This document shows, piece after piece, positions 80 through 62,714 of a stretch of DNA of 64,000 nt. A program made the position numbers and the translations under genes. Each line of letters starts with the position of its first letter. Position 1 is the first letter of the stretch. The notes beneath the pieces are model-generated. The model was not told the origin of the DNA. It worked only from the letters and a program-made list of their open reading frames with translations, and made no database searches. Source of the DNA: Saprospiraceae bacterium (lineage in GTDB: Bacteria > Bacteroidota > Bacteroidia > Chitinophagales > Saprospiraceae); contig JAEUUP010000096.1 in NCBI GenBank assembly GCA_016787525.1, positions 25,608 to 89,607 of the forward strand, given 5' to 3'.

Positions 80-159
80 AATACTTCCAGATTTTTAGAA
101 TTTTTTAAAAAATGTGATTCAATACATTAAATAATACTGAGGGGTCTGTTTATAGCGAA

Positions 160-167
160 CAAATTTA
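160..167 (-). promoter_or_regulatory. Candidate Bacteroidota -7 box for the lemA-like gene
   Basis: The minus strand reads TAAATTTG here, matching the Bacteroidota -7 consensus TAnnTTTG. It lies 80 bases upstream of the LemA start codon. No clear -33 TTTG was found at the usual distance, so the call rests on the -7 box alone. Confidence 0.4.
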
Positions 168-267
168 GACAAAAACTTTGCTTCTACAATTTTTTGAAGC
201 AAAATGTGATAAAAACGTGAATCAAACTGTACATTTTTGCCCAAATTATCACATCAAACACAGCATA

Positions 268-1077
268 ATGAATCGGTTTATCTTCATTTTAGTTCTGTCG
301 TCTATTGCCAGTATGGGCTTTTTATCCTTTATTAGCGGTAAAAAGACGACTAATCCACCTAATTCATCGCCTAAAAATTTGACATCTTTGAATAAGGAAA
401 AAGCTAAAGGCGTGGCTGTCATGGAATTGTTCACCTCACAAGGTTGCTCCAGTTGCCCTCCTGCCGACGATTTACTGAGGGGTGTCGCGAAGCAAGAGAA
501 TGTCTTTGCATTGAGTTTTCATGTCACCTATTGGAATCGCTTAGGTTGGCAAGACTCATTCAGTCAAAAAATATTCGATGAACGACAATATGATTATAGT
601 TCTCATTTCAATACACAAAATATTTACACGCCTCAAGCCATCATCAATGGCACGATTGAGTTTGTAGGTTCTCGCAAAAGTCAAGTGGACAAATATATCC
701 ATCAAGCCATAAACACGCCCTGCAAAATAGATGTAACCTTATCTAAAGTATTGAAAGACAATAAATTTGCTATCCATTATGCCTTCAAAAGTCAAACAGA
801 AAGTGACAAAATTGATTTGGAAAATACCCAATTAAACATGGCTCTCGTCGAATCGAATTTAGAGACCAAAATACAAAATGGTGAAAATACTGGGCGTACA
901 CTGAAACACGATAATGTTGTGCGATATTTTAATACAACAAATGCCAGCCATACTGAAGGGGTGCTTGAAAGTAGGATTTTGGACAATTGGCAGATTAAAA
1001 ACTGCGCTGTGATTGTATTTTTGCAGCACAAAAAAACGCGACACGTTTTAGGGGCTGCTAAAATTAATTTGAATTGA
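268..1077 (+). CDS. DUF1223 family thioredoxin-like secreted protein
   Basis: A 269-residue protein with an N-terminal membrane or signal segment (about residues 3-22) and a DUF1223 domain. The domain opens with VAVMELFTSQGCSSCPPAD, giving a CSSC pair at residues 60-63, and continues through WNRLGWQD and YTPQAIING, all typical of this thioredoxin-fold family. The role is unknown; a redox function outside the cytoplasm is an inference from the fold and the CxxC. I chose the ATG at 268 over upstream in-frame codons because it places the hydrophobic segment at the N terminus. One dispersed motif copy (474-482) encodes LLRG just after the CxxC, and a near-copy with an extra A (TACTGAAGGGG) lies at 951-961. 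Confidence 0.8.
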   Translation: MNRFIFILVLSSIASMGFLSFISGKKTTNPPNSSPKNLTSLNKEKAKGVAVMELFTSQGCSSCPPADDLLRGVAKQENVFALSFHVTYWNRLGWQDSFSQKIFDERQYDYSSHFNTQNIYTPQAIINGTIEFVGSRKSQVDKYIHQAINTPCKIDVTLSKVLKDNKFAIHYAFKSQTESDKIDLENTQLNMALVESNLETKIQNGENTGRTLKHDNVVRYFNTTNASHTEGVLESRILDNWQIKNCAVIVFLQHKKTRHVLGAAKINLN

Positions 1078-1107
1078 ATATCACAAATAAAAATTCAGCG
1101 GCAATAT

Positions 1108-1173: not shown

Positions 1174-2391
1174 ATGAAAATTCTTCACACCGCCGATTGG
1201 CATCTTGGAAAACGACTTGAAAACTTTAGCCGACACGAGGAACAAGTCGCTGTTCTGGACGAAATTTGTTCTATTGCTGACCGCGAAGATGTAGATGCCG
1301 TTGTCATTGCAGGCGATATTTTTGATGTTTTTAATCCACCTAACGAGAGCGCAGAATTATTTTTCAAAACATGTAAAAGATTATCTAACAATGGTTTACG
1401 TGCCGTCATTGCTATTGCAGGCAATCACGACTCGCCAGAGCGTATTGAAGTACCCGATGTCTTGGCACGTGAAAGTGGCATTGTTTTTTTAGGTTTTCCG
1501 ACCACTGTTGTTCAACCTTTTTCGCTGTCAACAGGCTTGTGTTTAATCAAAAGTGATGCAGGCTTTATTGAGTTGAAATTGCCCCGTTGTGCCTACCCTT
1601 TACGCCTTTTTTTAACGCCTTATGCCAACGAATACCGCTTGCGACAATACCTCAACATTGAAAATTCGGAGGAAGAGTTGCGCCAAAAACTGACTGAGCA
1701 GTGGTACAATTTGGCACAAAAATATGCTGATACTGAGGGGGTCAATATCGCCGTTGCTCACTTATTTGTGGCGGAACTCAAAGGCAAATTGCCCGAAGAG
1801 CCAGAAGAAGAAAAGCCTATCCATGTCGGCAACGCCAGCGTCATCTACAACGATTGTTTCCCCTTTGAATTCCAATATGTGGCTATGGGACACCTGCATC
1901 GGCAGCAAGAAATCAGCTCTTCACCCTGCCCTGTTGTCTATTCTGGTAGCCCATTAGCGTATAGTTTTCATGAAGAAAATCAAGATAAATATGTCATGCT
2001 CATAGAAGCTAAACCGAACGAAAACGTTGATTATCAACGCATTAAATTAACAAAAAATAAAAAATTACTGAGGGGGCGGTTTGAAACAGTGGACGAAGTT
2101 TTGAGCTGGGTGGCGCAAGTGCCTGACGATTTATTGCACATTACGTTGCTGGGTCACGAGACATTGAACCAATCAATAACACAGCGCATACGTGATGCGC
2201 ATAAGAGCATCATTTATATTCTTCCCGAAACTTTGAGCGATGACGGCTCTGTGGGTATTAAAAATATTGAACTCAATAAAAGCATAGAAGAATTATTTTC
2301 TGATTACTTTTTTCATATCAAAAAGTATCCCATAAATAATGAATTACAATTACTATTCAAAGAGATGCTGACTGTGGAGTTGGAAAACTAA
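1174..2391 (+). CDS. sbcD: Exonuclease SbcD (Mre11-type nuclease subunit)
   Basis: A 405-residue metallophosphoesterase, the nuclease subunit of the SbcCD complex, which cuts DNA hairpins and protein-blocked ends. The phosphoesterase motifs stand in order: MKILHTADWHLGK at the N terminus, VVIAGDIFDVF, AIAGNHDSPERI, AVAHLF and YVAMGHLHRQ. Together they supply the metal-binding Asp, His and Asn residues. I chose the ATG at 1174 because the family begins directly with MKILHT; a TTG five codons upstream is less likely. sbcC follows after 11 bases, so the two are surely one operon. SbcCD is relevant here because the window holds several long palindromes, the natural substrate of this nuclease. Motif copies at 1732 (DTEG) and 2067 (LLRG) are tolerated inside the gene. 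Confidence 0.95.
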   Translation: MKILHTADWHLGKRLENFSRHEEQVAVLDEICSIADREDVDAVVIAGDIFDVFNPPNESAELFFKTCKRLSNNGLRAVIAIAGNHDSPERIEVPDVLARESGIVFLGFPTTVVQPFSLSTGLCLIKSDAGFIELKLPRCAYPLRLFLTPYANEYRLRQYLNIENSEEELRQKLTEQWYNLAQKYADTEGVNIAVAHLFVAELKGKLPEEPEEEKPIHVGNASVIYNDCFPFEFQYVAMGHLHRQQEISSSPCPVVYSGSPLAYSFHEENQDKYVMLIEAKPNENVDYQRIKLTKNKKLLRGRFETVDEVLSWVAQVPDDLLHITLLGHETLNQSITQRIRDAHKSIIYILPETLSDDGSVGIKNIELNKSIEELFSDYFFHIKKYPINNELQLLFKEMLTVELEN

Positions 2392-2402: not shown

Positions 2403-5400
2403 ATGACACCTAAATATTTAATAATCAAAGGTTTGTACTCCTATAAAAGTCAACAAGAAATTGATTTTACAAAATTGACTGAGGGGGGGCTGTTTGGTAT
2501 TTTTGGAAATGTGGGCGCAGGTAAATCGTCTATTCTTGAAGCCATCATGCTTGCACTCTATGGTGAGGTTGAGCGTATGGGTAAAATGAATAGAAACTAC
2601 AATATATTAAACCTTAGTAGTGACTCTCTTTTGATTCAGTTTGATTTTGAGATAGACAGAAAATTATATCGGAGTAAAGTAACGGGTAGGCGAAACAGCA
2701 AAGATTTTAACGATGTCAGCATAAAATCGCCCAATTTTTACGAACACAAAGGCGATGATTTTGTGCCTATCAACATACCCACTGCTGAAAGCCTGATAGG
2801 TTTAAAATCGAGTGATTTCAAAAAAACCATCATCATTCCACAAGGCACTTTCCAAGATTTTCTACAACTCAGCGATGCGACACGAACTGAAATGATGGGC
2901 AAATTATTCGGCTTGGAACGTTTTGATTTAGATCCCTCTGCAAAATTTCTGCAAAATGAAAACAATAATAAATTAGAAAATCAAAAATCAAATTTGGCTG
3001 TTTTGGGCGATATAAAACAGCAAGATATTGACACCAATAAGGTACAACTCATTGATTTACAAAAAAGTATAGAACTTAAACAACATGAACTTGACCAAAA
3101 AAGGGCGTTTGAAATTTCTCAAAAACAATTGAAGGGTGATTTTGAAATGCACCAAAAAATACAAAGACAATTTGAAGTTTTGATGTCCAATGAATCACAA
3201 ATTATTCTTGCTGAGAAAAAATTGGATGAGTACGAGAAGGTTAAGCTTCATTTTGCAAACCTTTTAGAAAACCATAAAAATTTGACCCATGACATTGCTC
3301 AGAACAACTTAGAATTGAGTCAAAAACAAGAAAATTTAGCTCAAAACAATAAAACTCTTCAAAATTTAATAAATCTCAAAGCTGAGATGACCCCTCAGTA
3401 TGAGCAACGAGAAATCTTGAAGAAAAAGGTCGTCGAAATTCAAAAAATCAGTAGTATTAAAAAAGAATCACAATTAATCGCCGAAAAAACAGGGCGTTTG
3501 CAAAAAGGATTAACGCTGCTCACTTCCAAAAATGCAGAACTCGAATCTGTAAAAATGCAGTTGCACGAATTAGACAATCGCAAAAAGGTATTGACTCAAA
3601 ACACACCTAACTGGTTGGTATTAAATGCTGTAAATGATTGGTTTACAAAGAGTTTGCAGCTTGAAAACGAGACTAAACGATTGTCACTTGAATTAACTTC
3701 AAGGGAGGAAAAAATCAAAGCCATGCTGCAAAGAGTCGAACTTTTTATGGCTAAGGATTTGCCTTTTTTTAACATTCGTTTGAGAAGTGGCAGCAAAATA
3801 GCGGATGTGATTGGAGCTGTGAAGGCAAAAATTGAGGAATTGAATCACACAGCCACAAGCTATCAACAGGAGCAAACCCATCTTTTGGCACATGAAAAAT
3901 TAGAATCGTTGGCTGCTAATCTGATTGAAGGCGAAGCATGTCCGTTGTGTGGGGCAACGCACCACCCCTCAGTCATGCAGGCTGGCACTATTCGTGAAAA
4001 TTTAGTCAAATTATCAGCACAGTTGACTCAGATAAAAAACAGTTTAAAAACCTTGAATAATATTGACCAAGAATTATTTACACTTAATACAAATATCAAT
4101 AGTGAAATCATAGATTGCCAAAAACTAAACGCAGATATTGCCACCAATGAAGCCTATCGGAGAGAACATCGAATGTCATTTAGTTGGCAACCCCTATTTG
4201 AACCTACCCAATTTGAAGCTGTCAAAAATGCCATAGATAATGCTGAAAATACCGAAAAAATCAAACTCCAGTTGGATAAAGACAGCAGTTTGACTCAAAA
4301 AAATAAAGAAAAAATTGAACAAGATATTGAACGATATAAAACTGAAATAACAAAAATTCAGACCGATATTGCGTCTTTGACGGCTTCAGTTCAAGTATTA
4401 AGAAATCAAATTGAAGTTTTAAATTTTGAAGAAACCAATAAATTAGAAGAGGCACATTTAAAAAAATTAGCGCAATCATTTGACAATCAATATACTGAAA
4501 TTGAAGCTAAATTTTCTATCAACGAAAATAATATTCAAAAGCTGCAATCTGAAGCCCAACTACTGAGGGGGGGTATCGAAGCCTTGTTGAAAAGTCAAAG
4601 CCAATTGATAGAAAAAGAAAAAGCTATTGCGAATGAATTATCTAATAAACTTGTAGAGAATGGCTATTCTGATGTGGCATCAGTAGCATCTATTTTATCG
4701 CAAAAAATAGATACCGCGACTGAAAGAAAACGCATTGAAGAGTTTAAGAATCAAAAACTTGTACTTTCTGCACAATTGGATGAGTTGAGACAAAAAATGC
4801 AAGGAAAGACGTTTATACAAACTGAATATGAGGCACTGTTGACAGATATTCAAAAAATGGATGCAGAACTAAAGGCGCATCTAAGTAAAGTTGGCGAATT
4901 GAATCGAGAGATTTGGGAGCAAGAACGACGACTCAGTCAGCGCATCGAAATTGAAAAGCAACAAAAAGAAACACTCATTCGTGCCGAAAATATTAAAATA
5001 CTGAGGGGTCTGTTTTATGGAAAAGGTTTTGTCAATTATGCCAGCTCAAAATATTTAAATAGCATCATACATGCTGCTAATCAACGTTTTATGAAACTGA
5101 CAAAACAACAATTGAGTTTACAAATCACTGAAAATAATAACTTTATCATTCACGATTTGCTCAACGGTGGAAAGGTTCGCGATGTCCGTACACTATCAGG
5201 GGGACAAACTTTTCAAGCGGCTTTGTGCTTGGCTTTGTCGCTGAGTGACCATATACAAATCCGAAATCAGGCACAACAAAACTTTTTTTTCCTTGACGAA
5301 GGTTTCGGTTCGTTGGATAAGGAAACTTTGCAAACAGTTTTTGATACATTGAAAGCACTACGTAAAGAAAATAGAATTGTAGGTATTATATCTCATGTTG

Positions 5401-6237: not shown

Positions 6238-6335
6238 GCTATTTCAACTTGAATACTGAGGGGTTTATTTTGTTTATGAAAAGTTAAATGCTATAATTGT
6301 GACAAAAAACAATTTGTTAAAGACGAATAACGGTT

Positions 6336-7097: not shown

Positions 7098-7757
7098 TTA
7101 GTTAATTTTAAACAATTCGACTTCAAAAACTAAAGTTTCATAAGGTCCAATATCTGCACCTGCTCCGCGCTCGCCATAAGCCAAATTGTAAGGAATGAAC
7201 AATTTGTATTTTGAACCCACTTTCATCAATTGTAGTGCTTCTTGCCAACCTTGAATAACACCATTGACAGGAAAATCAATCGTTTGACCACGTTGAACTG
7301 AACTATCGAATACTTTTCCATTGAGCAATGTACCGTGATAGTGAACAGTGACTTTGTCGGTTGCTTTAGGCATTACACCCTCGCCTTCTTTAATTACTTC
7401 ATATTGCAAGCCACTTGCTGTTGTTTTTACTGAGGGGCGTTTAGCATTCTCAGTCAAAAATTTTTGACCCGCTTCAATGACAGGCAAAAATTTCTTTTGT
7501 TGTGCTTCTTGCATAAATTTACTAAAAATCATGTTGGCATTTTGTACATTAATCACTTCTTTGCCTTTCATTGCCTCCTCGAAGCCTTTTGCCATTGAAG
7601 CAGCATCAATATTGATGGCTTCTCCATTTTTGAAATTTTGAGCGAACAAAACGCCCAAGCTGTAACTTACTGAATCCATTTTTAGGTTTGAATCTTGAGA
7701 AAATACATTTGTCGCAAGTAAAATTGCGGCTGCAAATGTCGAGAGAATTTTTTTCAT
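7098..7757 (-). CDS. FKBP-type peptidyl-prolyl isomerase, exported
   Basis: A 219-residue isomerase of the FkpA/Mip type, which speeds proline isomerisation during folding in the periplasm. A signal peptide (about residues 1-20, ending NVFSQ) is followed by a helical dimerisation domain that opens with the family's SYSLGVLFAQNF. The C-terminal FKBP domain contains ASGLQYEVIKEGEG, VTVHYHGTLLNGKVFDSS, VNGVIQGWQEALQLM and NLAYGERG. The order and length match the family. The gene may have its own promoter (TACCTTTG at 7808-7815). The start is divergent from the DUF5684 gene, with a large nested palindrome between them. Confidence 0.92.
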   Translation of the reverse strand: MKKILSTFAAAILLATNVFSQDSNLKMDSVSYSLGVLFAQNFKNGEAINIDAASMAKGFEEAMKGKEVINVQNANMIFSKFMQEAQQKKFLPVIEAGQKFLTENAKRPSVKTTASGLQYEVIKEGEGVMPKATDKVTVHYHGTLLNGKVFDSSVQRGQTIDFPVNGVIQGWQEALQLMKVGSKYKLFIPYNLAYGERGAGADIGPYETLVFEVELFKIN

Positions 7758-8667: not shown

Positions 8668-9032
8668 TAAAAACCGTCGGAAGTCGAGAAAACTCGGAAG
8701 TCTTCCCGACTTGACAGCAATACTCATAACCATTTAAAAATTAATTCAACACTACGGCATTCCGTAGAAATATCTTTAACAACCTACGTTTTATCACTTT
8801 ACTGAGGGGGTGCTATTGATCCATTTCTTTAAAAATATTTCTTAATAATTTTGTGACACTAGAAATGAATGATGGTACAAAGATAAGCCCTAAAAATTAA
8901 TATCCGCAATACCTAACTCACTATATATTTTTCATGACAACAAAATGTAATTTTGCACCTACCTTTTTTAATAAAGCGCAAATATATAACTGCATTTTCA
9001 TCAATTATGTTGTTTAACAGTAATTTTTTTTT
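8628..9032. other. Intergenic stretch with one motif copy
   Basis: After the terminator, this stretch holds a short imperfect inverted repeat around 8680-8715 (AAGTCGAG and CTCGGAAG with CGACTT), a small palindrome CTACGG-CATT-CCGTAG near 8755, and one dispersed motif copy (8801-8810). I see no gene and no clear promoter box for the downstream hydrolase. Confidence 0.6.
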
Positions 9033-9989
9033 ATGCCACTTATAAATTTTTCAAGTTATCAAAAAGCCCCGTTTTGGCAATTCAATGGCGATTTCCAATC
9101 TATTTTACCCGCCTATCGTCCAGTTTTACACATAAATTATATGAGGGAACGGATTGAAACACCTGACAACGATTTTTTAGATATTGATTGGTTAGACACC
9201 AAAAGCCGAAAATTAGTCGTCTTGACTCACGGTTTAGAAGGTGATTCGCAACGTCCATACATACGGGGCATGGCACATATTTTTTCAAAAAACAATTGGG
9301 ATGTACTCGCTTGGAATTGCCGTTCATGTAGCGGCGAGATGAATCGAGCTTTCAGGCTCTACAATCATGGCGAAATCGGTGACATCGAAACGGTGCTAAA
9401 TTATGCGCTGAACAAAAAGAACTACGATGAAGTGATACTCATAGGTTTCTCGATGGGTGGGAATATTTCTCTGAAATTTGCCGCGGTCAAACACCCCCCC
9501 TCAGTAAAAAAGGTGATTGCATTCAGTGCACCACTCGAAATGCGTACTTCCACGGCTATTTTGGACTATCCATCGCGCTATATTTACAAAGCATATTTCC
9601 AAAAAGGGATTCTACCCAAAGTTAAAATGAAAGCCCAGATGTTCCCCGAAAGACTTAGCTTGCAAGAGGTGGAAGCTGCCAAATCGTGGGAAGCGCAACA
9701 ACACCTCTTTTTTGTCAGAATAAACGGCTACAAAAGCATTGATGATTTTTATGAAAAAGGCTCTGCCATCAATTTTATTCCCGATTTAAAAATTCCAGCT
9801 CTCATCGTTCAAGCACAAAATGACCCAATGCTTACACCTGAGTGTTCCCCCGTAGAATTAGCTAAAAATCACAAGTTTATACATCTTGAAATTCCGAAAA
9901 TTGGCGGACATTGTGGCTTTATGTTGCCTCAAAATCGTGAATATACGTGGTCTGAACTGCGCGCGTTAGAGTTCGTTACATCACAATAG
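9033..9989 (+). CDS. YheT family alpha/beta hydrolase
   Basis: A 318-residue alpha/beta hydrolase of the YheT (UPF0017) family. The oxyanion region VVLTHGLEGDSQRPYIRGM is diagnostic. The nucleophile elbow GFSMGG has Ser140. The acid and His are expected in PALIVQAQNDPML and IGGHCGFM. Conserved WNCRSCSGE matches the family. The substrate is not established for bacterial members; small esters are likely. The gene stands alone between two intergenic gaps. The motif copy at 9494-9505 has seven C on this strand and encodes HPPSV. Confidence 0.88.
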   Translation: MPLINFSSYQKAPFWQFNGDFQSILPAYRPVLHINYMRERIETPDNDFLDIDWLDTKSRKLVVLTHGLEGDSQRPYIRGMAHIFSKNNWDVLAWNCRSCSGEMNRAFRLYNHGEIGDIETVLNYALNKKNYDEVILIGFSMGGNISLKFAAVKHPPSVKKVIAFSAPLEMRTSTAILDYPSRYIYKAYFQKGILPKVKMKAQMFPERLSLQEVEAAKSWEAQQHLFFVRINGYKSIDDFYEKGSAINFIPDLKIPALIVQAQNDPMLTPECSPVELAKNHKFIHLEIPKIGGHCGFMLPQNREYTWSELRALEFVTSQ

Positions 9990-10816: not shown

Positions 10817-11587
10817 ATGTTTTTCATTCTTTCCAAACTGCTGTATTTCATTTTGCAGCCACTGAATTGGTTGATAGGTTTACCCATTTTTGCCATTTTG
10901 ACAAAAAATGCACGCCGCAAACGCCGCATACTGAGGGGGTGCTTTGCACTGTTAGTCATTATCACCAATCCATTTTTAGGCAATCGCGTTTTTCATGCTT
11001 GGGAAGCAGAAGAAGTCTCCATGTCTGCCTTGAAAGATACTTTTGACATAGGTATCGTCTTGGGTGGTTATACGAAAGGTGGCTTGTATCCCGAAAACAG
11101 ACTTCATTTTTCGACGGCAGCCAACAGATTGACAGATGCTGTTCAACTTTACAAAAGAGGCTATATCAAAAAATTACTTATCAGTGGAGGAGATGGTAAA
11201 TTATTAGGCAAAACCTATCCAGAATCCGAATTGGCAAAACAGTTTTTACTCGATATGGGAGTCAAACCCGAAGATATTTTGGTGGACTATCAATCGCGCA
11301 ATACACACGAGAATGCCCTTTACTCAAAACAACTTCTTGATAAACAAGGTCTTACAAATGGTAAACTCTTGGTTATCACTTCTGCTTTCCACATTCCAAG
11401 AGCGATTGGGTGCTTCAAAAAAGTAGGTATTAATGCAAGTCCTTTCCCTGCTCATTTTATTGCCGAAAGATTATCTTTTGAACCCAGTGCATGGTTGACA
11501 CCTGACCCCGAAGTGCTAAAAAATTGGGAAATTGTCCTGAAAGAATGGGTTGGGTATTGTGTTTATAAACTTCAGGGCTATATATAA
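10817..11587 (+). CDS. YdcF/ElyC-type DUF218 membrane protein
   Basis: A 256-residue protein with two N-terminal membrane segments (about 5-25 and 40-55) and a DUF218 domain. Landmarks are DIGIVLGGYTKGGLYPENR, KKLLISGGDGKL, SRNTHENALYSKQLL and LLVITSAFHIPRAIGCFKK. ElyC-type relatives in E. coli affect envelope integrity and the lipid carrier of cell-wall synthesis, but the reaction is not settled. A motif copy at 10930-10939 encodes ILRG between the membrane segments. A perfect 18-bp hairpin follows. Confidence 0.85.
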   Translation: MFFILSKLLYFILQPLNWLIGLPIFAILTKNARRKRRILRGCFALLVIITNPFLGNRVFHAWEAEEVSMSALKDTFDIGIVLGGYTKGGLYPENRLHFSTAANRLTDAVQLYKRGYIKKLLISGGDGKLLGKTYPESELAKQFLLDMGVKPEDILVDYQSRNTHENALYSKQLLDKQGLTNGKLLVITSAFHIPRAIGCFKKVGINASPFPAHFIAERLSFEPSAWLTPDPEVLKNWEIVLKEWVGYCVYKLQGYI

Positions 11588-11656: not shown

Positions 11657-12472
11657 TCAGAGAATAGCTTGTCGAATACTCACCAATTTCTCCAACAAGT
11701 CTTCCAACTTATCCAAAGGCAGCATATTCGCTCCATCGCTCTTAGCTACTGAGGGGTTCGGATGCGTTTCGATAAACAAACCGTCCACGCCTACCGCTAC
11801 GGCAGCCCGAGCAATGGTTTCAATCAGTGCAGGTTTTCCGCCGGTAACGCCTGTTTTTGAATTGGGTTGTTGCAAAGAATGGGTACAATCCATAATAACA
11901 GTTGCACCGAGTTGCTGCATTTCGGGGATATTGCGATAATCAACAACCAAATCTTGATACCCAAAAGTATTGCCACGTTCTGTCAACATGACTTTTTCGT
12001 TGCCCAAATCAATGACTTTTTGCATAGCATGAGCCATCGTTTCGCTGCTGGCAAATTGTCCTTTTTTGATATTAACGACTTTACCAGTTTGCGCCGCAGC
12101 TACCAAAAGACTGGTCTGACGACATAAAAAGGCTGGAATTTGCAAAATATCTACACATTCTGCTGCCATCGAAGCCTCTTCGTCGGCATGGATGTCCGTT
12201 GTGGTGGGCAAATGGTAGGTGCGTCCTACTTTTTCCAAAATTGCTAAAGCCTTTTCATCACCAATGCCCGTGAATGAGTCAATCCGCGAACGATTGGCTT
12301 TGCGGTATGAGCCTTTAAAAATATATGGAATCTTCAATTTGTCGCAAATCGCTGACACACGGAGCGCAATTTCAATGGCTAAATCTTCGCTTTCAATCGC
12401 ACAGGGGCCTGCAATAAGAAAAAAATTGCCGCTTTCAGTGTGTTTTATTTTTGGTATCTGATTGATATTCAT
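11657..12472 (-). CDS. kdsA: 3-deoxy-8-phosphooctulonate synthase KdsA
   Basis: A 271-residue aldolase that condenses phosphoenolpyruvate with arabinose 5-phosphate to give Kdo 8-phosphate for the lipopolysaccharide core. Diagnostic stretches are LIAGPCAIES, FKGSYRKANRSR, TTTDIHADEEA, DILQIPAFLCRQT, NIKKGQFASS, MLTERGNTFGY and IETHPNPSVAKSDGANML. The length fits. The Cys in GPCAIES is the usual metal ligand in metal-dependent KdsA; other residues are needed to decide the class. It is the last gene of a minus-strand envelope cluster. The motif copy at 11748 encodes NPSV in the conserved loop, so selection on the protein did not prevent it. Confidence 0.95.
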   Translation of the reverse strand: MNINQIPKIKHTESGNFFLIAGPCAIESEDLAIEIALRVSAICDKLKIPYIFKGSYRKANRSRIDSFTGIGDEKALAILEKVGRTYHLPTTTDIHADEEASMAAECVDILQIPAFLCRQTSLLVAAAQTGKVVNIKKGQFASSETMAHAMQKVIDLGNEKVMLTERGNTFGYQDLVVDYRNIPEMQQLGATVIMDCTHSLQQPNSKTGVTGGKPALIETIARAAVAVGVDGLFIETHPNPSVAKSDGANMLPLDKLEDLLEKLVSIRQAIL

Positions 12473-12478
12473 AGTTTT

Positions 12479-13093
12479 TTATAGATTTTCAAATTTTATA
12501 GAATAACTTTTCAAATATACTTTTTTGCCTCGCTCTGTTAAGACAAAATCATCAAAAGCCAATTGCACATTCGGTAGTTTTTCTAATTCAGGACGTTTAT
12601 GAGGTGTGATGATGACAACATTTTTCGTCCACATAAATAATTGACTGACAAGTGCATACAGTTGTTTTTTAGGACATAAGTGCATCGCAAAACTTGAAAT
12701 AATAGAGCTAAAATGCTGATTAAGAATGGCTAATTGACCTTTGATAATATCCTCAAAACTGAGTTTTAAACATTCAATACCCGTATTTTTCTCAAATAAC
12801 TCAAAAGTAAAAGGGTCACAACCCATTGAATTACCGAAACCAATACCCCTCAGTATGAGTGTCACTTCACCACCGCCACAAGCCAAATCCAAGGTTTTTG
12901 AGTAATCTATGCGATGTCGGTTTTTCTCTAAAATTTGCTGAATATAGGGAAAATGAGGGTTTTCGTAGGCGTTACCATACTGTTGATAATAGTTTTCAAC
13001 GCCCAAATCGGCGTATTCATTCCGAATGGCTTTAAACGAAAACGCCGACTTGTCGAGGTCGGCGTTGGGTTTATGTATCTTTGTCTTTTTCAA
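12479..13093 (-). CDS. Class I SAM-dependent methyltransferase
   Basis: A 204-residue protein with a Rossmann methyltransferase fold. Motif I is TLDLACGGGEVTLILRG (about residues 67-83), followed by MGCDPFTFELFEK for the ribose-binding acidic loop and a conserved SFAMHLCPKKQLYALVSQLF. The substrate is not recognisable. It starts 18 bases after the MCE gene and ends 6 bases before kdsA, so it belongs to that operon. The motif copy at 12846 encodes ILRG directly after motif I. Confidence 0.8.
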   Translation of the reverse strand: MKKTKIHKPNADLDKSAFSFKAIRNEYADLGVENYYQQYGNAYENPHFPYIQQILEKNRHRIDYSKTLDLACGGGEVTLILRGIGFGNSMGCDPFTFELFEKNTGIECLKLSFEDIIKGQLAILNQHFSSIISSFAMHLCPKKQLYALVSQLFMWTKNVVIITPHKRPELEKLPNVQLAFDDFVLTERGKKVYLKSYSIKFENL

Positions 13094-15656: not shown

Positions 15657-15790
15657 TTAAAACGCGTTTGTAGTGTGTGACGATTGTGGATTCAAAAAAT
15701 TTTTGTGGTTTGAATCTACCCCCTCAGTATAAAAGGGCAAAAAATCGTCTTTTAATATTTTCAGACGCAAAAATAAGGAGATTTTCGACC

Positions 15791-18548: not shown

Positions 18549-18584
18549 TTGGTCATTTTTAGCCCCCCTCAGTAAAATGACCAA
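18549..18584. terminator. Hairpin with the dispersed motif as its loop, between lptD and the DUF486 gene
   Basis: TTGGTCATTTT at 18549-18559 pairs with AAAATGACCAA at 18574-18584 (11 bp, perfect). The loop is almost exactly one copy of the motif (CCCCCCTCAGT, 18563-18573). The two flanking genes converge, so it probably ends both. Confidence 0.7.
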
Positions 18585-23778: not shown

Positions 23779-23815
23779 TATGTTTACTGAGGGGGTATCA
23801 ATCCCCTTTCTTTAT

Positions 23816-25606: not shown

Positions 25607-25630
25607 TCTGTTTTTTCCCCCCCTCAGTAT

Positions 25631-39381: not shown

Positions 39382-39488
39382 GGCATTACACAATTGTTAA
39401 TCTCGAAAAAATAGCCCCCCCTCAGTATTTTCGATGAAAAGAAAGGTTGAAAGAGTGAACGACAATTTTTTTTCACTTTTCACATTTT

Positions 39489-52127: not shown

Positions 52128-55100
52128 TTATTGCTGCCACAAAATAGACTCTACTGGCATATCATCTCCAATCAATTCTAATAATTCAATAGCATTCAAA
52201 CACCACTGCGCTGTATTATTGGTCGAAACAGTAGGTATTTCACGCATAAACCGCAAATTATTGGGTGGATTTACCTCTTTTGTTCCGAATATCGCCCCAT
52301 TTTTATAATATTTTGGCGATAAAAATATGTCCCAAGACTTTTTTGCAGCCTGTGTGTTTTTTGTTTGATAAGCAAAATAGGCAGGCAAACGGCAAAAATG
52401 CGGCGACATTTCATTCAGTTGAACCGATTGTTGAAATGCTTTTTGCGTTTCTTCTTTCGATGCGCCATACAATTCACAATACTGTAAAAACAGACGTGTC
52501 CAATCCGCATCTTTGAAGTAACGACTCAACTCAAAAGCCACTTCTGGACCTCCCATCAAGACGCTCAAGTGCGATTGTCCAATGTCTTTCGGATTCAATT
52601 GATACAACTCATTCGTTTTGGGGTCATAACCAAACGCACCTTGCACCCCTGAATAAAATCCATAAGGCATTTTGGCAAAACTTTTTACCCCCCTCAGTAT
52701 TTTTTCTTTCCAAGTCGAGTCCCCTGTACGTTCCCATTCGGTCATCCAATTGCCCACCATCGCAAACCAGTCTGGTCCGACTCTCGCATGAGTGGGATAT
52801 TCCGATTTGGGTAAAATCAAACGTAAAGGGTCTGTTTTGACTAAAGTTTGATCTGCATTCGCTACTTCTCGCATCAACTCGCCTGTACGTTCATCTGTCG
52901 TCAGATAGTATAAAAAACGTTTCAAAGCGGCTTGACTGATGCGAATCTCCTTAGAGCCACAGCCCCAATGCCGCACATTGTGCCTCGAACCCAAGCCTGC
53001 AAAACGCCCCAAATGATATACATCCACCTCGCTCGTGTGACGGGTCATTGCCTCTGCCATGCGAAAGGCATCTGATTTGCCCGTTCGCAAAAAATTATAC
53101 CACAGCCATAAATCTGGCATCAATTCCGTATTTGCCCATGCAAAACCACCGATGTCGTAACGCCAAGCATGGCGCACATCATCATAGGTATGCATGACAT
53201 CACCATAATTCCAGTAGCCATACCAACGTCGTTGTTCTACTTCATTTTTATAAAAATTAAAAGCGGAATCTAATTGATTTTCAATCCATTCCCGCCCTTT
53301 TGTCGTGCGATTGGGCAACGACCACACACCAAAAGCTTGCACATTGTGCAGATACTGAGGGGTCGCCATAAGCAAGGGTGGGTTGTTAGAAATATGTACA
53401 GCATGATTCAAAAAATCGTTCGTTGGTACTTCTCCGTAAAAACCCAAAGTCCATTCACTTGTACGAGCAACGCCTTGCGGTGTCGAAAAACCAGGTTGAA
53501 CATCTTCATACGATGCTTCCAAACCATGTCCCCAAGCCAAAGTATCGTAGTGACGCATATCCATCGCTTCACCAAAAGGCGACCAAGACCACCCCCTCAG
53601 TATCGCAGCATCGGAAGCGGCATTTTTAACCTCAAAAGCAGCAGGATAAGACTGCCAAAAATCGCGTAAACTCAACGACAAACCACCCGATACATCGCCA
53701 ACAAACACCAAACCCGAAGCTCGTTTACCTGCATTGACATCAATCCATGCGCCTTTATCGTGTGTTCTTTTTTGAATAGAAAAACCGTCTGCCGCATGTT
53801 GAGTCAAACGGAAATCACGCCAAATCGCCCAATCTTTAATGAGGTTTTGCCCTTTGGTATCGTATGTATCTTGATTGGGTACACGTTTTCCTAAAAATTG
53901 ACTGTCGTACACATTTTTTTTATCCCAAATCAAGGTTCTGCGCCCTGTAAGCGGTTGTATGGGTTCTGACCAAATACCACCACTCTCTTCTGATTCTCCG
54001 CCAAAACGAACATGACGATTCAGCACCTCTTCACGCATTGGCACATCAAATTGCCAACCGATACCTTTGATAAAATCTTTGTCGGCTTCACCATCGTAAA
54101 TCAAAGTTTGAACGATGCGTACATGCTCAATATCAGCGTAAAAATAAAGCCGCACAATAAACGGCAGCCATTCGCGCTTCCCATCTGAAAAAACACCTTC
54201 AATGCGCACAACGGCTTTAATTTCACCATTCTGCTCAATGCTTACATTTTTAATTTTATTTTTAAATACCTTTTTTTCAATAGTTTGTGCCATCTCCAAT
54301 TCACCATCGGGTTTATTTTGCCAATGACAAACCAGATAGCCATTGCGCCCAATCAAACGGTTTTGATACGTCAAAGAGTCTAGTAAAATATTGCCATTGC
54401 GAGGTATGGAACAGCTGATTTTGCCCGTTTGAATGTGAATATTCTGCGCATTTTCTTCAATTTTAAGGGTATTGACCTGTTTGGGCATTTTGCCAATACT
54501 CAATTCAAATGCTTTTTCATTACCTTCGACAACAGTGGCTAAACCAAACCATTTGAGTGAACCGTCGTCCCAATAAGCATTTGTCCATGTTTGCAAAGGC
54601 ATTGTTTTACCTTCGTTGCTTTTCAACAAAAATGTTTCTTTTGTAGAAATTTCACCTCTTTTGAATGGTACACCCCAACTGACACCCGTTTTTACTGAGG
54701 GGGGTGTTTGTCCTAACCAATTGAGCGTAATGGTACTTAAAAAGTTTTTTAGAGAACAGTTTTCTAAAGAACGAATACCGTCAACAACGATTGAAGCGTT
54801 GAGTTTTGCTCCATCAAAATTTGTATGCGTATTGTCTTTCGGAAAAAACTGTTCTTTAACAGCTTCTTGACTCAATTTTTCATAAGCAGAAGCTATTTTT
54901 TTATTCAAATCAATGAAAAATACCCCTTCTTGCTCTGCTATTTGCTGCGCCCAAGATGCGTAAGAGTCGCTTGATAGCACCACTTTACCATTTTTATCCC
55001 AATTATTGCGTGGCACGAGCGAGCAAATGATAGGAATTGCGCCTTTGCTTTTGGCATCGCGCACATATTTTCGCATATACCAACCATAGGTGTAAACCGT

Positions 55101-55562: not shown

Positions 55563-55594
55563 ACCCCCTCAGTAAAGGCTGATACTGAGGGGGT
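55563..55594. terminator. Hairpin made of two inverted motif copies, 55563-55594
   Basis: ACCCCCTCAGTA (55563-55574) and TACTGAGGGGGT (55583-55594) form a perfect 12-bp stem with an AAGGCTGA loop. It sits between the SusD gene and the esterase-lyase gene on the same strand, so it may attenuate transcription into the latter. Confidence 0.7.
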
Positions 55595-57116: not shown

Positions 57117-57278
57117 TATTGAATGATTTTAACATTTAAATTGATAAAAATACTGAGGGGGTAGAGAATTACGAATTAACTTATTGATTATAAATCAATT
57201 ATGCTAATAGAGTAAATTTACTGAGGGGGTAAAAAGGGTTTTGCAAAGCAAAACTCGTAATTCCTAATTCGTCATTCA

Positions 57279-60200
57279 TTAAAACCCTGCTTGCACACCC
57301 AATGTCAAGACTTTCGCTTGCGGATAACCACCATAATCTCCACCTTCGTTGTTTAATGCTTCAGGAGAGAGACCGCCGTAGTATTTGTGCCAGATAAAGG
57401 CATTTTCAAGCGACAAATAGAGTCTCAACGATTGAAATCCTTTGATTTTAGGTGCATCATAGCCCAAAGTGATGTTTTTGATGCGCAGATAGTCTGAGCT
57501 ATACAGCCAACGTGTGTCGTAGAAACCACCTGTTGAAGCATTCATATTAGGCACCCAACCGTTACCAGGTTTATCAACCGATTGCCAACGGTCTTTCCAA
57601 ATCGCCAATTTATTGTACAAATAGCCCATTGTCGGGCGGTCAATTGAGCGACCAATCATGGAGTAAATACTACCACCTGTTTGTGCAAAAGCGACAATAC
57701 GGAGGTCAAAACGCTTGTATTTAAAGTCGTTTGTCAAACCATAAGTGAAGTCAGGCGTTGGTTGCCCTACGATAGAACGGTCTGCGGCTGTAATAACACC
57801 ATCGCCGTTGGTGTCCGCATAACGAGAATCACCGACTTTCATCGTTGACATTTTGGGATATTTTGCCAAATCATCGGCATTCATAAATACACCAACGTGT
57901 GAGTAAAGCATCATAGAGTTGATAGGAGAACCCACTTGAATGATATTTGTCAAGTTTGAAAAGCCTTGTGGGATAGGTGTATTGTCGAAACCTAATTTCA
58001 AGACGGTGTTTTTGTTATAAGAAACATTAAAATTTGTGCGCCATGTGAAATCACTTCTGACAATATTGCGTGAAGTCAAAGTCAATTCATAACCTTTGTT
58101 TTCAATATCGCCTACGTTTTGCCAGCTTGTACTGAATCCAGAAGTTGCTGAAACAGGTGCTTGAAGCAGCAAGTTATTGGTCAAACGGCGATATCTATCT
58201 ACCGATACTAAGATACGATTTTTGAACAATCCGAAATCCAAACCAAAGTTCGTACTTTGTGTTTGTTCCCAACCCAAGTCAAGGTTTTCAATCGTCACAG
58301 GACTGAAACCAGCGACTGAAACATTATTAAACGGATAGTTTTGATTGCCCAATAGTGAGAATTGCGCATTGTCGGGGATACGATTGTTGCCTGTTACGCC
58401 CCAAGAACCACGTAATTTTAAATCACTTACTATATTGTTGTTTTTTAAGAATTTTTCTTCTGAAATGCGCCATGCACCTGAGACAGCAGGGAAAATACCC
58501 CAGCGTTTGTTTGAGCCAAATTTGGAAGAACCGTCTTGACGCAAACTTGTTGAAACGATGTATTTGCCTTTGTAGTCATAACCTGCACGACCGAAATATG
58601 AGACTAAGCCCGTTTTACCAGCACTGATACTTGATCCAATTGTTTTGACAGAAGATGTGCTGAAAATAGGCGACCAGTCGTTGGCAAAGCCTGATGCCGT
58701 TTGTCCACTGGCTTCAAATTGTGTTGTTTCAATCGAATAACCTGCAATTACATTAACATTGTGCGTTTTGTTGAATGATTTATTGTAGCTCAAAACACTT
58801 TGGAACAAATAGCGATTGTTCCAGTTTTGATTGCGGGCGGCTGTTGTTGCTGCACCTTCAACTGTGGTGGCCCAATCACGTAGAGCCGATGTGGGTGTGA
58901 AACGCAAGTCCGTATAGTAGTTGAAATCCATGCCCGCCATAAATTGCGCTTGCAAACCGCTTACAATGTCCACATTCAAATAAGCATTAGAATTTAAACG
59001 ATAGCGACGTGCGTCAAAAACGGAGCGTTCCATATTGGCGATTGGGTTTTGATAACGACCTGACCAAGCATAAGACGGATAAGGCATTGCACCTGTGTAT
59101 TTTCCATACGCTTTGTCCACCACAGGTGGCATCTGAATCGCAACCATCGCCGTATTGTCTTTGCCATCTACACGACCCGTATTCGACCATTCTACTGAGG
59201 GGGCGAGCATGACACCAAATTTAAAGCGATTGGCAATTTTTGTTTCAAAATTAGCACGCAAATTGACCCTTTTCAAGTTCGTTCCGACCGCAATACCATC
59301 TTGGTCGAGGTAAGAAGCTCTGATATTGTACGACATATCGTCACTACCACCGCTTACACCCAATTCGTTATACTTCATCATGGCATCGCGGAACATTTCT
59401 TTTTGCCAATCAATGTATTGCAAACTGTCTTGCCCATAAGCCCATTTGGGGTCATAAATCAAGTTGGCAATAGATAGAGAAGGTGTTGCCCAAGGACTAA
59501 CCCCTAACTCGGCTGCACGAAATTCTTGTGAGTCTGTTGCTTTATAGTCTTTTTTAGGATTCAAAGTTTGTCCACGCGCCACCCATGCTTCGTCAATACT
59601 CTCTTTACGCATCTGAATCCAATCTTCTGCCGAGAGCATATCTATCTTACTTTCAAGGCGTTGCATACCGATATATCCCGAATAAGTCAAACGCGGTTTG
59701 CCTTTTTTACCTTTTTTAGTCGTCACCAACACAACGCCATTTGAACCACGAGAACCATAAATCGCTGCGGCTGCCGCATCTTTCAAGATGTCAATGGTTT
59801 GTACATCCGTTGGATTGATGCCCCGTAAGTTGTCCACAGGTACACCGTCAACAACATAAAGCGGCTCATTTGAGGCATTGATAGAGCCTGTGCCACGTAC
59901 ACGGATTTGCATCTCCGCACCAGGTTCACCGTTGACCGTTTGAGCATACACACCTGCTAACTGACCTGAAAACGCATTTTCAATACGATTCAAAGGACGG
60001 TCATCGAGGTCTTCACTTGATATGCTGGACACGGCGTTGGCGATATTGCCTTTTTTAGCCGTACCATAGCCAATCACAACCGCTTCATCGAGCATACCAG
60101 CTGCTGCTTCCAAAGTAATTTTTAGAGCAGCCGAACCTTTGAAATTCTCCTCATGCGGCTTATAGCCTACAAAAGAAAAAATGAGTGTACCTGATTGAGC

Positions 60201-60416: not shown

Positions 60417-60513
60417 TATCAAAGTGAGTTTAGTTGAGTAAAAATATTTATGAGTAGTGGTTGTGTCGGCTTTACACATTTTAAGGTATAACGCATTGTC
60501 AATAGCTCTTCGA

Positions 60514-60861
60514 CTATAAGAAATCTTCACGCAGAGGGGAAAAAACATCAATAAGTAAACCATCTTCCAAACAAACAGCACCATGAACAGCATTCTCGGG
60601 AACAAAATAAACATCGCCCCCCCTCAGTATTTTTGCCTCACCACTGATGGTTATTTCAAAAACACCGCTAGCGACATAGCTGATTTGTAGGTGTGGGTGG
60701 TGATGCAACGCACCTATTCTGCCTTTCTCGAAGGTTACTTTGACGAGCATCAAAACATTGTTATATGCCATAACTTTGCGACGAACACCTTCTTCTACAT
60801 TCGTCCATTCCAACTCGTCATCGGTAATTAGCGTCTTTCCAAAAAGTTCTGAGATTGTCAT
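60514..60861 (-). CDS. kdgF: KdgF-like cupin
   Basis: A 115-residue single-domain cupin. GALHHHPHLQISYVASGVFE and GGDVYFVPENAVHGAVC give the metal-binding His residues, and the end LLIDVFSPLREDFL is typical of KdgF. KdgF converts the unsaturated uronate released by pectin and alginate lyases to its linear keto form, which fits the lyase three genes away. It starts the locus, 97 bases ahead of susC. The motif copy at 60617-60628 (seven C on the plus strand) encodes ILRGG in a cupin loop. Confidence 0.8.
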   Translation of the reverse strand: MTISELFGKTLITDDELEWTNVEEGVRRKVMAYNNVLMLVKVTFEKGRIGALHHHPHLQISYVASGVFEITISGEAKILRGGDVYFVPENAVHGAVCLEDGLLIDVFSPLREDFL

Positions 60862-61193
60862 CTTGAATCAAAAAAGTTAAAGATAGACATGAAACTATAC
60901 CTATGATTCTATTTAAAAATAAGGCTTTAGCAATATTTTATGTCAGGTTTTCAATATTTGCCACAATGATATTTTAAGTATGGCGTTATTGCGCTATCTT
61001 TTTTGATTTTACTTTTATACTTTTTGGTCGGTAACGTTCCCGATATTCTTTTTTACATAAAGTCTTTATAAAACCCCATAAAAAGAAGTGCTTCCCAAAC
61101 ACAATTTGGGAAGCACTTTTAGTTTCATAAATATTCTTACAGATTTAGTAACAGCTAGCTATTTTTTAATTTCGGGTAAACCAATTCAAATTT
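60862..61193. other. Intergenic stretch upstream of the kdgF-like gene
   Basis: It holds the promoter region of the pectin locus, where I see no perfect TAnnTTTG box, and the flippase terminator (61086-61118). No gene and no motif copy were found. Confidence 0.5.
61086..61118 (-). terminator. Terminator of the flippase gene
   Basis: A perfect 14-bp stem (AAGTGCTTCCCAAA at 61086-61099 with its complement at 61105-61118) and a CACAA loop, followed on the minus strand by CTTTTTATG. Confidence 0.8.
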
Positions 61194-62714
61194 CTATGGC
61201 TTTCGTTTTTTTATTGAACCCCAAAACTGGTTAACAGTCTGACTGACATCCGTCGAAACATTAAACCTTAAAATCAAGAAAAGATAAACCACCGCCACTA
61301 TTGAGCCTTTGAGAAAAATGGTGAGCATGGCATTCACCATTTTGGGCAAATCTGCAAAATATACTGAGGGGGTCGTATAAGCCGCCAACCAAGCCAAAAA
61401 CCCGAAGGTAAAAACCCACAACATGCGCCTATCCAAAGGCTGCATATTGAACTTCTGTTTGATAAACACCAACCGCCAGACATTCACAATCGCTATCGCC
61501 AACAAAGTCGCCAACGCCGAGCCTTCGATGCCCCAAATAGGTATCAAAAGAAGGTTCAAGACGATATTCATAACCGCCATCGTCGCAAATGAACGAAAAT
61601 TGAAGCGATAATATTCCGAGAAAGTGATAATTTCGGCATTCGTCCCCGTCGCCATATCCGCCAAACGAGACAAGCCGAGAATCAAAATCACCCATTTGCC
61701 CGTTCGGTAGGCTTCGCCATTTTTTATCATCAAATCGAACAAGGAGTCCGCACACGCCCACACGCCCGTCAACAGAAAAACACCCGCTATAACCTGCAAC
61801 AAAGCCGTTTTTCGATAGATTTCGCTGATGTGCGCCCAGTTTTTTTCGGCTATTGAGGTCGCAATCAAAGGTTGTGCGATGCCCGACAAGGCTTTGCGCG
61901 GCACATCAATCGCTTCGGCTATCATCGCCCCGAAACTGAATATTGCCAAAGATTCGTAACCCAACATAGGTGTTATGAATATTTTATCCGCTTGTTGTGC
62001 AAAGACACTGCCTAAAACAATCGTGAAATTAAACGCCGAAAAACGCACCATCTCTGCCGCATACCCCCTCAGTATAGAGCCGTTTTTGGGCAATACAAAA
62101 CTGTTCGGACGCAAAAAATAGACATAGCCAACCACGCCCATCATCATCAAAAAGAACGTCAAAGCCAGTCCTTTGAAAACTTGTGTGAAGCCGATGATGC
62201 CAAAGAAATACAGCAAAACTAAGGTCGGTTGCGCTACTTTGGGCAACAAATTCTGGAACAACGATGGCACAACAATCCGACTCTGATTCGCAGCAAACGA
62301 GTTGAACAAAGTAGCCACTGCCACCAAAATCGTAAATATCAAAATAAAATGAAGCGAGTTGAGGAACTGGTCGGCATCTTTTTGAAAGAAAGAAGCGATG
62401 GGCAAACGAAATAAATAAATCAACGACACAAAAATCAAAGTCGTAGTCAAAGTAGAAAGGGTGAGCAGACTTAAAAAACCATTGTCCTTACCATCTTCCG
62501 TCTTGAAATTGGGGTAGAATCGCGTGGCGGTCATGCTGGACGCAAACGAAGCAAAAGGCGCGAAAAAAGCGGCCGTACTGATAGCAAATTGAATCATACC
62601 CAACTCCGTTTTGTCAATCAGCGTATAGATGAAGATGGAACTCACCGCCCCTATGACCACACCGAGATAACTCACCAAGCTGTTTTTGATACTTTGCCGT
62701 TTGATAATACCCAT
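61194..62714 (-). CDS. Polysaccharide flippase (Wzx-like)
   Basis: A 506-residue membrane protein with about fourteen segments of the MOP (Wzx/MATE) exporter superfamily. KNSLVSYLGVVIGAVSSIFI opens the protein; ATRFYPNFKTEDGKDNGFLS and IWGIEGSALATLLAIAIVNV are typical. It would flip lipid-linked oligosaccharide units of capsule or O-antigen. It starts one base upstream of the stop codon of the epimerase gene (62714/62715), so they form an operon. Motif copies at 61363 (TTPSV) and 62064 (ILRG). Confidence 0.85.
   Translation of the reverse strand: MGIIKRQSIKNSLVSYLGVVIGAVSSIFIYTLIDKTELGMIQFAISTAAFFAPFASFASSMTATRFYPNFKTEDGKDNGFLSLLTLSTLTTTLIFVSLIYLFRLPIASFFQKDADQFLNSLHFILIFTILVAVATLFNSFAANQSRIVVPSLFQNLLPKVAQPTLVLLYFFGIIGFTQVFKGLALTFFLMMMGVVGYVYFLRPNSFVLPKNGSILRGYAAEMVRFSAFNFTIVLGSVFAQQADKIFITPMLGYESLAIFSFGAMIAEAIDVPRKALSGIAQPLIATSIAEKNWAHISEIYRKTALLQVIAGVFLLTGVWACADSLFDLMIKNGEAYRTGKWVILILGLSRLADMATGTNAEIITFSEYYRFNFRSFATMAVMNIVLNLLLIPIWGIEGSALATLLAIAIVNVWRLVFIKQKFNMQPLDRRMLWVFTFGFLAWLAAYTTPSVYFADLPKMVNAMLTIFLKGSIVAVVYLFLILRFNVSTDVSQTVNQFWGSIKKRKP

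What the first reader, a model, noticed from the sequence alone, without database searches (positions are those of the whole stretch)
136..62073. A 10-base word repeated about once per kilobase: candidate DNA uptake-like signal in a Bacteroidota
ACTGAGGGG is present 66 times on the two strands of 64 kb; a random 9-mer is expected about 0.5 times, and fewer in AT-rich DNA. Copies are spread evenly, in both orientations, in genes (48) and between them (18, more than the share of intergenic DNA). No longer sequence is shared around them, so they are not copies of a mobile element. Density, spread and use in terminator hairpins match the uptake sequences of Neisseria (DUS) and Haemophilus (USS). 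Other options are a Chi-like site, a chromosome-organising site or a methylation target. I know of no such word described in Bacteroidota.
Basis: partly seen in the sequence, partly recalled or inferred. Interest (0 to 1): 0.95.

Follow-up and report, generated by a model that had tools for sequence, protein, structure and literature searches.

The report
Genome-wide DNA uptake word in Bacteroidota
One Bacteroidota genome carries the same 10-letter DNA word 6,920 times, evenly spaced and almost unmutated, and three phage records with integration genes carry it nearly as densely; it likely acts as a tag by which the cells would prefer DNA of their own kind, a kind of signal our paper searches did not find described in this phylum.

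Summary
ACTGAGGGG occurs 66 times in the window (shuffles: mean 0.11) and TACTGAGGGG 6,920 times in the 7.27-Mb genome (reversed control 3), equally on both strands; the other 397 family genomes searched hold 0-14. Words arose in place by substitution (30 of 36 ungapped), have almost no mutated cores, survive paralogue divergence (32 of 51) and are spaced more evenly than random. Three viral records carry 25, 28 and 30 copies; all three encode integration or transposition proteins. Strand balance per contig speaks against Chi-type sites. New: AT content around the word swings with a ~10.5-bp period on both sides, in host and phage words alike, so the word anchors phased, probably bent DNA. Best reading (0.55): an uptake-signal-like word kept by biased DNA uptake, in a lineage with ComEC, an HHH protein and DprA but no pilus ATPase over the cut-off. 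Main rival: a gyrase-like DNA-wrapping site (0.2). Uptake itself is untested.

The parts
136..144 (+). word ACTGAGGGG (T before)
474..482 (+). word
1732..1740 (+). word
2067..2075 (+). word
2478..2486 (+). word, preceded by G
3391..3399 (-). word
3965..3973 (-). word, preceded by G
4562..4570 (+). word
5000..5008 (+). word
6255..6263 (+). word
7429..7437 (+). word
8801..8809 (+). word
9497..9505 (-). word
10930..10938 (+). word
11748..11756 (+). word
12846..12854 (-). word
13429..13437 (-). word
14727..14735 (-). word
15720..15728 (-). word
17320..17328 (-). word
17599..17607 (-). word
18565..18573 (-). word
19178..19186 (+). word
20739..20747 (+). word
21456..21464 (-). word
22859..22867 (+). 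word
23661..23669 (-). word, left arm of an inverted pair between convergent genes
23676..23684 (+). word, right arm of that pair, T-run follows
23786..23794 (+). word
25620..25628 (-). word
26880..26888 (-). word
27374..27382 (+). word
28409..28417 (+). word
29047..29055 (+). word
30942..30950 (+). word
32315..32323 (-). word
32403..32411 (-). word, preceded by G
34139..34147 (-). word
34942..34950 (+). word
36024..36032 (+). word
37066..37074 (+). word
37884..37892 (-). word
38056..38064 (+). word
39418..39426 (-). word
40115..40123 (+). word
40754..40762 (+). word
41162..41170 (+). word
42266..42274 (+). word
44707..44715 (-). word
45755..45763 (-). word
47114..47122 (+). word
48769..48777 (-). 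word
49496..49504 (-). word
49887..49895 (+). word
52690..52698 (-). word
53354..53362 (+). word
53593..53601 (-). word
54694..54702 (+). word
55565..55573 (-). word, left arm of an inverted pair just downstream of ORF 55629-57116 (-)
55584..55592 (+). word, right arm of that pair
57152..57160 (+). word
57220..57228 (+). word
59194..59202 (+). word
60620..60628 (-). word
61363..61371 (+). word
62065..62073 (-). word

Best explanation
The word TACTGAGGGG, present 6,920 times in this genome (preferred context A-TACTGAGGGG-G/T), is likely a DNA uptake signal: fragments that carry it would be taken up preferentially by cells of the same lineage, and that bias would have spread and preserved it by molecular drive. 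Shown: number, both strands equal, even spacing, in-place origin by substitution, near absence of mutated cores, survival through paralogue divergence, phased AT/GC flanks, near-host density in three phage records with integration or transposition genes. Inferred: a surface or periplasmic receptor reads the word and needs the flanking DNA to be bent; uptake runs through ComEC, a ComEA-like protein with four HHH matches close to comEC, and DprA, without a type IV pilus; prophages gain words while resident in the chromosome; one word per roughly 1-kb fragment suffices, which would explain why close pairs are rare. Untested: uptake itself, the receptor, and whether the three phages infect this species.
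For: 6,920 copies against 3 for the reversed control; one-mismatch copies 1,011, so relative excess falls 304-fold from load 0 to load 1, against 92- and 82-fold in H. influenzae and N. gonorrhoeae (PMC1939737, passages). No strand bias in 7 contig pieces of 64 kb or more (p 0.73), no link with GC skew (rho 0.11, p 0.40). 30 of 36 words aligned to congener orthologues without gaps nearby. 32 of 51 words perfectly kept between paralogous DNA copies. Under-dispersed spacing: CV 0.73 against 0.99 +- 0.027 in simulation; pair density rises from 0.27 below 100 bp to about 1 at 1-1.5 kb. Intergenic and convergent-gene enrichment. Three viral records with 25, 28 and 30 words, 0.71-0.94/kb, all with integration or transposition proteins; this matches Pasteurellaceae, where temperate phages accumulate USS (PMC6776037, passages) and HP1 and HP2 carry 17 each. 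USS too has phased AT tracts (my control), reported to matter for uptake (PMC7811141, passages). ComEC, an HHH protein close to it, and DprA are present. An ORF that reads like an IS256-type transposase (recalled name) lies in a word-free gap, as expected of newly arrived DNA.
Against: No uptake experiment. No PilB/PilT-type ATPase over the Pfam cut-off (four weaker matches in G000, 21.7-23.1 bits against 24.9, were not examined), although every uptake-sequence system I know of uses type IV pili (recalled). ComEC, HHH and DprA are equally present in the word-less congener, so they do not explain the difference. Flank phasing is two-sided and reaches beyond 100 bp, unlike the one-sided tracts of USS within about 27 bp. 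Close pairs are depleted (30 pairs under 100 bp, about 112 expected), whereas 23% of USS10 lie within 100 bp of another (PMC7811141). No word-free stretch above 5.2 kb in the 1.19 Mb sampled, fewer than I would expect if foreign DNA also arrives by other routes.
Confidence: 0.55

Rival explanations
1. The word is the core of a DNA-wrapping site, in the manner of a strong gyrase site or of a sequence-addressed nucleoid protein, of which about one per kilobase is needed on any resident DNA.
For: AT content oscillates with a ~10.5-bp period on both sides (amplitude 0.076 upstream, 0.042 downstream, noise 0.003; three usable controls 0.008-0.029 in the same ranges), fading by about 200 bp; alike in intergenic and coding words (0.090 and 0.092 for -45 to -2) and larger in 83 phage words (0.129 for -44 to -2, noise 0.012). 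E. coli gyrase sites have arms with 10.75-bp GC periodicity and lie downstream of highly transcribed operons (PMC6379681, passages). Short-range exclusion and excess in convergent intergenic DNA would fit.
Against: No fixed 10-mer is known to me for gyrase (recalled). GyrA looks ordinary and alike in G000 and the word-less congener (frames of 873 and 881 aa, six CTD-repeat matches each). Two of the longest word gaps lie in a ribosomal-protein operon (gene names from my reading of the translations), where gyrase demand should be high. Exclusion reaches to about 1 kb, well past a 130-bp wrap.
Confidence: 0.2
2. Chi-like site: the word regulates a RecBCD/AddAB-type nuclease and protects word-bearing DNA, with phages carrying it to survive.
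For: G-rich, dense, and present in phages.
Against: No strand bias on any of 7 long contig pieces (26-81 words per strand, single p 0.21 to 1.0, joint p 0.73), no link with GC skew, none relative to genes (300 sense, 289 antisense). Known Chi sites are mostly leading-strand biased (recalled).
Confidence: 0.07
3. A resident mechanism other than uptake (biased gene conversion or an unknown word-writing enzyme) spreads the word on all long-resident DNA.
For: Words overwrite sequence in place, saturate the sampled genome evenly and sit on prophage-type DNA.
Against: In SbcC, 4 of the 5 word sites fall on tetrapeptides also found at that place in homologues, whose own DNA I did not see, and frame use is uneven (197, 103, 0 sense; 124, 107, 58 antisense), as if words arose by ordinary mutation filtered by protein constraint. 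No such writer is known to me (recalled).
Confidence: 0.1
4. A short mobile repeat, or an assembly or sequencing artefact.
For: Absent at this density from the other 397 family genomes searched.
Against: Substitution, not insertion; never in the frame that gives an in-frame stop (0 of 589, although ORF calling enforces part of this); same word and same flank phasing in viral records from three IMG metagenome numbers.
Confidence: 0.01

Closest known systems
USS of Haemophilus and other Pasteurellaceae
   Same: About one 9-10-base word per kb, both strands, genes and intergenic DNA; phased AT tracts beside the core; accumulates in temperate phages.
   Different: Different word; phasing two-sided and longer; close pairs depleted; no pilus ATPase over cut-off; different phylum; sharper fall from perfect to one-mismatch copies.
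DUS of Neisseriaceae (dialects)
   Same: 10-12-base word with a core that hardly varies; both contain CTGA; inverted pairs at terminators; lineage-specific word.
   Different: No other word at this density was seen in single stretches of 40 relatives (39 gave sequence, 5 of these 10 kb or shorter), so no dialects were found; inverted pairs rare; no pilus ATPase over cut-off; the shared CTGA may be chance.
E. coli gyrase binding motif
   Same: Two periodic GC arms of about 10.5-10.75 bp on either side of a centre.
   Different: The gyrase motif is degenerate, without a fixed 10-mer; here the core is almost invariant.
Chi (RecBCD/AddAB) sites
   Same: Short, G-rich, frequent (recalled).
   Different: No strand bias here.
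HIP1 of cyanobacteria (recalled)
   Same: Very frequent short word without settled function.
   Different: HIP1 is palindromic; this word is not. Not compared by any search.

Membership tests
DNA uptake sequence (DUS/USS class) | Word enhances uptake or transformation of DNA that bears it | not testable with these tools
   No experiment possible; paper searches gave no test of this word.
DNA uptake sequence (DUS/USS class) | About one copy per kb genome-wide, both orientations | tested here: met
   6,920 copies in 7.27 Mb, 3,457 and 3,463.
DNA uptake sequence (DUS/USS class) | Over-representation falls with mismatch load | tested here: met
   885-fold at load 0, 3.9-fold at load 1; higher loads not counted.
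DNA uptake sequence (DUS/USS class) | Temperate phages of the host accumulate the word | tested here: inconclusive
   3 viral records with 25, 28, 30 words and integration or transposition genes speak for it, but they were found by their word pairs and that they infect this host is inferred.
DNA uptake sequence (DUS/USS class) | Inverted word pairs common at terminators | tested here: inconclusive
   16 of 18 close pairs inverted and 16 of 18 intergenic, but close pairs are depleted overall (18 against 64 simulated).
DNA uptake sequence (DUS/USS class) | Type IV pilus machinery that binds and pulls the DNA | tested here: not met
   PF00437 (PilB/PilT/GspE): no match over cut-off in G000 or G001, weak matches only; 14 of 14 control genomes ring, 13 over the cut-off. 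Secretins and pilins were not searched. So the word is described as working like an uptake sequence, not filed as a DUS or USS.
DNA uptake sequence (DUS/USS class) | Inner-membrane and recombination part of natural transformation (ComEC, ComEA-like HHH, DprA) | tested here: met
   present also in the word-less congener.
Gyrase strong site | Helically phased GC arms around a centre | tested here: met
Gyrase strong site | Gyrase binds and cleaves at the site | not testable with these tools
   Needs protein or Topo-Seq.
Chi site | Over-represented on the leading strand (recalled) | tested here: not met
   7 contig pieces of 64-160 kb all balanced, p 0.73; replication direction itself is not known.
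Short mobile repeat | Copies are insertions relative to orthologues | tested here: not met
   30 of 36 aligned words lie in ungapped alignment.

The most novel reading that the evidence does not exclude
The chromosome and its prophages share about one sequence-addressed DNA-wrapping station per kilobase, some 6,900 in all: a 10-base word that fixes a gyrase-like or nucleosome-like complex in helical register, a way of organising a whole bacterial genome that I know of nowhere else.
Probability: 0.2. Interest if true: 0.97.

Novelty: new variant of a known kind. Interest (0 to 1): 0.9.

Why it matters
Uptake signals are known to me only from Neisseriaceae and Pasteurellaceae, both with type IV pili (recalled). 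A word this dense and this conserved in a Bacteroidota lineage without a pilus ATPase over the cut-off would be a third, independent origin and would open the little-known DNA-import machinery of that phylum, since the word can be used to fish for its receptor. It also gives a ready marker for which phages live in this host and, through its helical phasing, a direct test of whether such words work by bending DNA.

Tried and rejected
Chi-, KOPS- and primase-type sites: rejected on strand balance of 7 long contig pieces and no link with GC skew. Insertion of a mobile repeat: rejected on orthologue alignments. A recent burst: rejected because 32 of 51 words are identical between paralogous copies of 65-84% DNA identity (several rows share one word, so they are not independent). 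An apparent run of all-forward words on contig C6 was an artefact of a truncated listing (checked). Protein helix periodicity (10.8 bp) as the source of the flank oscillation: rejected because 268 intergenic words show it as strongly as 885 coding ones near the word (0.090 and 0.092). Intrinsic genome periodicity: control 10-mers of the same strong/weak shape give 0.015 against 0.076 upstream; one control (TGAGGG without ACT) reached 0.029 downstream, and a fifth control, the reversed word, had a single context and says nothing. Other relatives with a word of their own: none seen, but only one stretch each of 40 relatives was read, one of them without usable sequence. SbcC homologues at 48-52% identity could not settle whether a sister lineage has the word, because four of five word tetrapeptides are widespread. 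Naming the organism by a genome scan: its own records may be left out there. The inverted-pair scan of genome contigs found 18 records with one pair each. Of the 40 distinct records found by pair scans (one search found none) I gave 25 to the whole-record count; the 15 others held only their pair in the fetched stretch. The rest of the sequence of G000 (84%) was counted for the word but not read.
Full report
What was checked. The window holds 66 exact copies of ACTGAGGGG (38 on +, 28 on -), mean 0.11 in shuffles; 63 carry a T in front. The window lies in contig C79 of a 7,267,541-base genome (G000, 98% complete, 1.8% contamination, 169 contigs), in which TACTGAGGGG occurs 3,457 + 3,463 = 6,920 times, and the same word read backwards 3 times. 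Of 398 genomes of the family searched (G000 and the one held congener among them; drawn from a larger group), every other genome has 0 to 14. The family is probably that of Haliscomenobacter/Saprospiraceae: one member has a contig of 8,371,686 bases, which I recall as the Haliscomenobacter hydrossis chromosome, and named homologues of a window protein include Saprospiraceae. This label is not a call result for G000 itself.

Shape of the signal. I read 1,193,054 bases of G000 (16%) with 1,161 words. Preferred context is A before and G or T after (A 0.61, G 0.61, T 0.34). One-mismatch copies at the five core positions ACTGA total 9 in that sample against 1,161 perfect copies; the first T and the G-run tolerate some change. 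Genome-wide there are 1,011 one-mismatch copies, 3.9 times the base-composition expectation, while perfect copies are 885 times it: a 304-fold fall in relative excess, steeper than the 92- and 82-fold reported for H. influenzae and N. gonorrhoeae (PMC1939737, passages read).

How the words arose and how old they are. In 64 reciprocal-best pairs with the word-less congener (from 793 kb of G000 and 502 kb of G001), I kept pairs of at least 38% identity; 36 words fall in aligned stretches, 30 with no gap nearby, 6 with one. So the word replaced sequence in place, changing residues where needed (for example TAVG against DTEG). 589 of 775 words lie in ORFs; reading frames are used unevenly and the frame that would give a stop is absent, which ORF calling partly enforces. 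Between paralogous DNA segments inside G000 (139 pairs), 51 words align and 32 are identical in both copies despite 65-84% overall identity; rows share words, so this is not 51 independent tests. The word is therefore, I infer, old in this lineage and kept under a strong force.

Distribution. Spacing is more even than random: CV 0.73 against 0.99 +- 0.027 in 500 simulations; variance-to-mean 0.44 in 213 windows of 5 kb, none empty; longest gap 5,180 bases. Pair density is 0.27 of expectation below 100 bp and reaches about 1 at 1-1.5 kb. All 7 contig pieces of 64 kb or more are strand-balanced (p 0.73), and strand shows no link to GC skew. Density is 0.84/kb in coding, 1.78/kb in intergenic DNA; 2.53 in convergent, 1.83 in tandem and 1.43 in divergent spaces (1,152 of 1,161 words classed). 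Close pairs are few (18 under 60 bp, 64 simulated) but mostly inverted (16) and intergenic (16), some terminator-like. Among the longest gaps are two in a ribosomal-protein operon and one with an IS256-like transposase (names from my reading of the translations).

Phages. Scans for paired words in viral contigs led to three records that carry the word at near-host density: 25 in 26.5 kb, 28 in 36.8 kb, 30 in 42.3 kb (0.94, 0.76 and 0.71/kb, host 0.95); reversed control 0 in each. The other 22 records counted hold 2-8. The three encode, respectively, a MuB-like transposition protein with terminase and portal, an integrase with terminase and an integrase. They were found because they carry word pairs, so word-less phages of the host would have been missed; their host is inferred. 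This mirrors Pasteurellaceae, whose temperate phages accumulate USS while large, likely lytic ones are poor in it (PMC6776037, passages); HP1 and HP2 have 17 USS each, 0.53-0.54/kb.

A new feature. Around the word AT content swings with a period near 10.5 bp: amplitude 0.076 for -60 to -3 and 0.042 for +12 to +70, noise 0.003; three usable controls give 0.008-0.015 and 0.009-0.029 there, and farther out the word has 0.018-0.023 against 0.004-0.014. The swing fades by about 200 bp, is alike in 268 intergenic and 885 coding words near the word, and appears in 83 phage words at 0.129 and 0.065, noise 0.012. For comparison I measured 354 USS contexts in USS-rich viral contigs: strong AT tracts at about +11 to +15 and +24 to +26 on one side only, and outside these 0.015-0.027, at other periods, with noise 0.005. 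So the Bacteroidota word sits in a two-sided, helically phased, probably bent stretch. Gyrase motifs have such arms (10.75 bp, PMC6379681, passages; other gyrases, PMC12324340, passages), which is why a wrapping site is the main rival. GyrA looks alike in G000 and the word-less congener.

Machinery. G000 has ComEC and, within about 1 kb on C7, a frame with four HHH matches, plus DprA and two NamZ/DUF1343-type proteins; the congener has these kinds too (one NamZ). No PilB/PilT-type ATPase passes the cut-off in either; weaker matches (four in G000, one in G001) were not examined. Riemerella anatipestifer, a naturally competent Bacteroidota, needs ComEC, DprA, ComF, RecA and four proteins unlike known machinery, among them an HHH and a DUF1343 protein (PMC8459023, abstract and two sections); a term search of that paper found no mention of an uptake sequence.

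Judgement. An uptake-signal-like word spread by biased uptake explains count, strand neutrality, lineage restriction, in-place origin, phage content and intergenic excess, and the even spacing if one word per fragment suffices (inferred). It does not by itself predict the long two-sided phasing, and the pilus motor normally involved was not found. I therefore hold it at 0.55, a wrapping site at 0.2, and describe it as working like an uptake sequence, not as a DUS or USS. Searches of the held open-licence papers for an uptake sequence in Bacteroidetes/Bacteroidota (listings only) and for the word itself (18 papers, of which the 10 listed were seen by title and start of abstract and concern animal, cell or virus work) gave no description of it; subscription journals are mostly not held there.

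Noticed in passing
window 41655-42171: Two tandem arrays of a ~48-50-bp unit in opposite orientation, containing AAACCCGTAGGGTTG; no word lies inside them.
   Followed up: no
window 44930-45204: Tandem repeats with a 21-bp unit (TTGCTTACTTGGTTATATTTT) in the gap between two minus-strand ORFs.
   Followed up: no
L066:12987-16592: Word-free stretch with an ORF that reads like an IS256-type transposase and an open frame of octads such as ITPFDLCI.
   Followed up: partly
L096:1-3300: A contig binned as a Leptolyngbyaceae MAG carries 5 words in its first 3.1 kb, while genes after about 4.9 kb read as cyanobacterial; probably a chimeric contig or a transfer from a word-bearing organism.
   Followed up: partly
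L122 (G030) and L155 (G002): Nine-mers GACCTGACA (8 in 20 kb, 0.09 expected) and CTGCTCGCC (9, 0.57 expected) are among the most repeated words in the relatives' stretches; far below the 1/kb word and not examined.
   Followed up: no
L102, L183, L189, L321-L325: The phage records hold more one-mismatch core variants than the host sample (7 beside 83 perfect words, against 9 beside 1,161), as if phage words were gained or lost more often.
   Followed up: partly
window 2403-5486 (SbcC): Four of five word sites fall on tetrapeptides (ILRG, ILRG, PQY, PSV type) that several homologues also have, so words seem to settle where the protein already allows them.
   Followed up: partly
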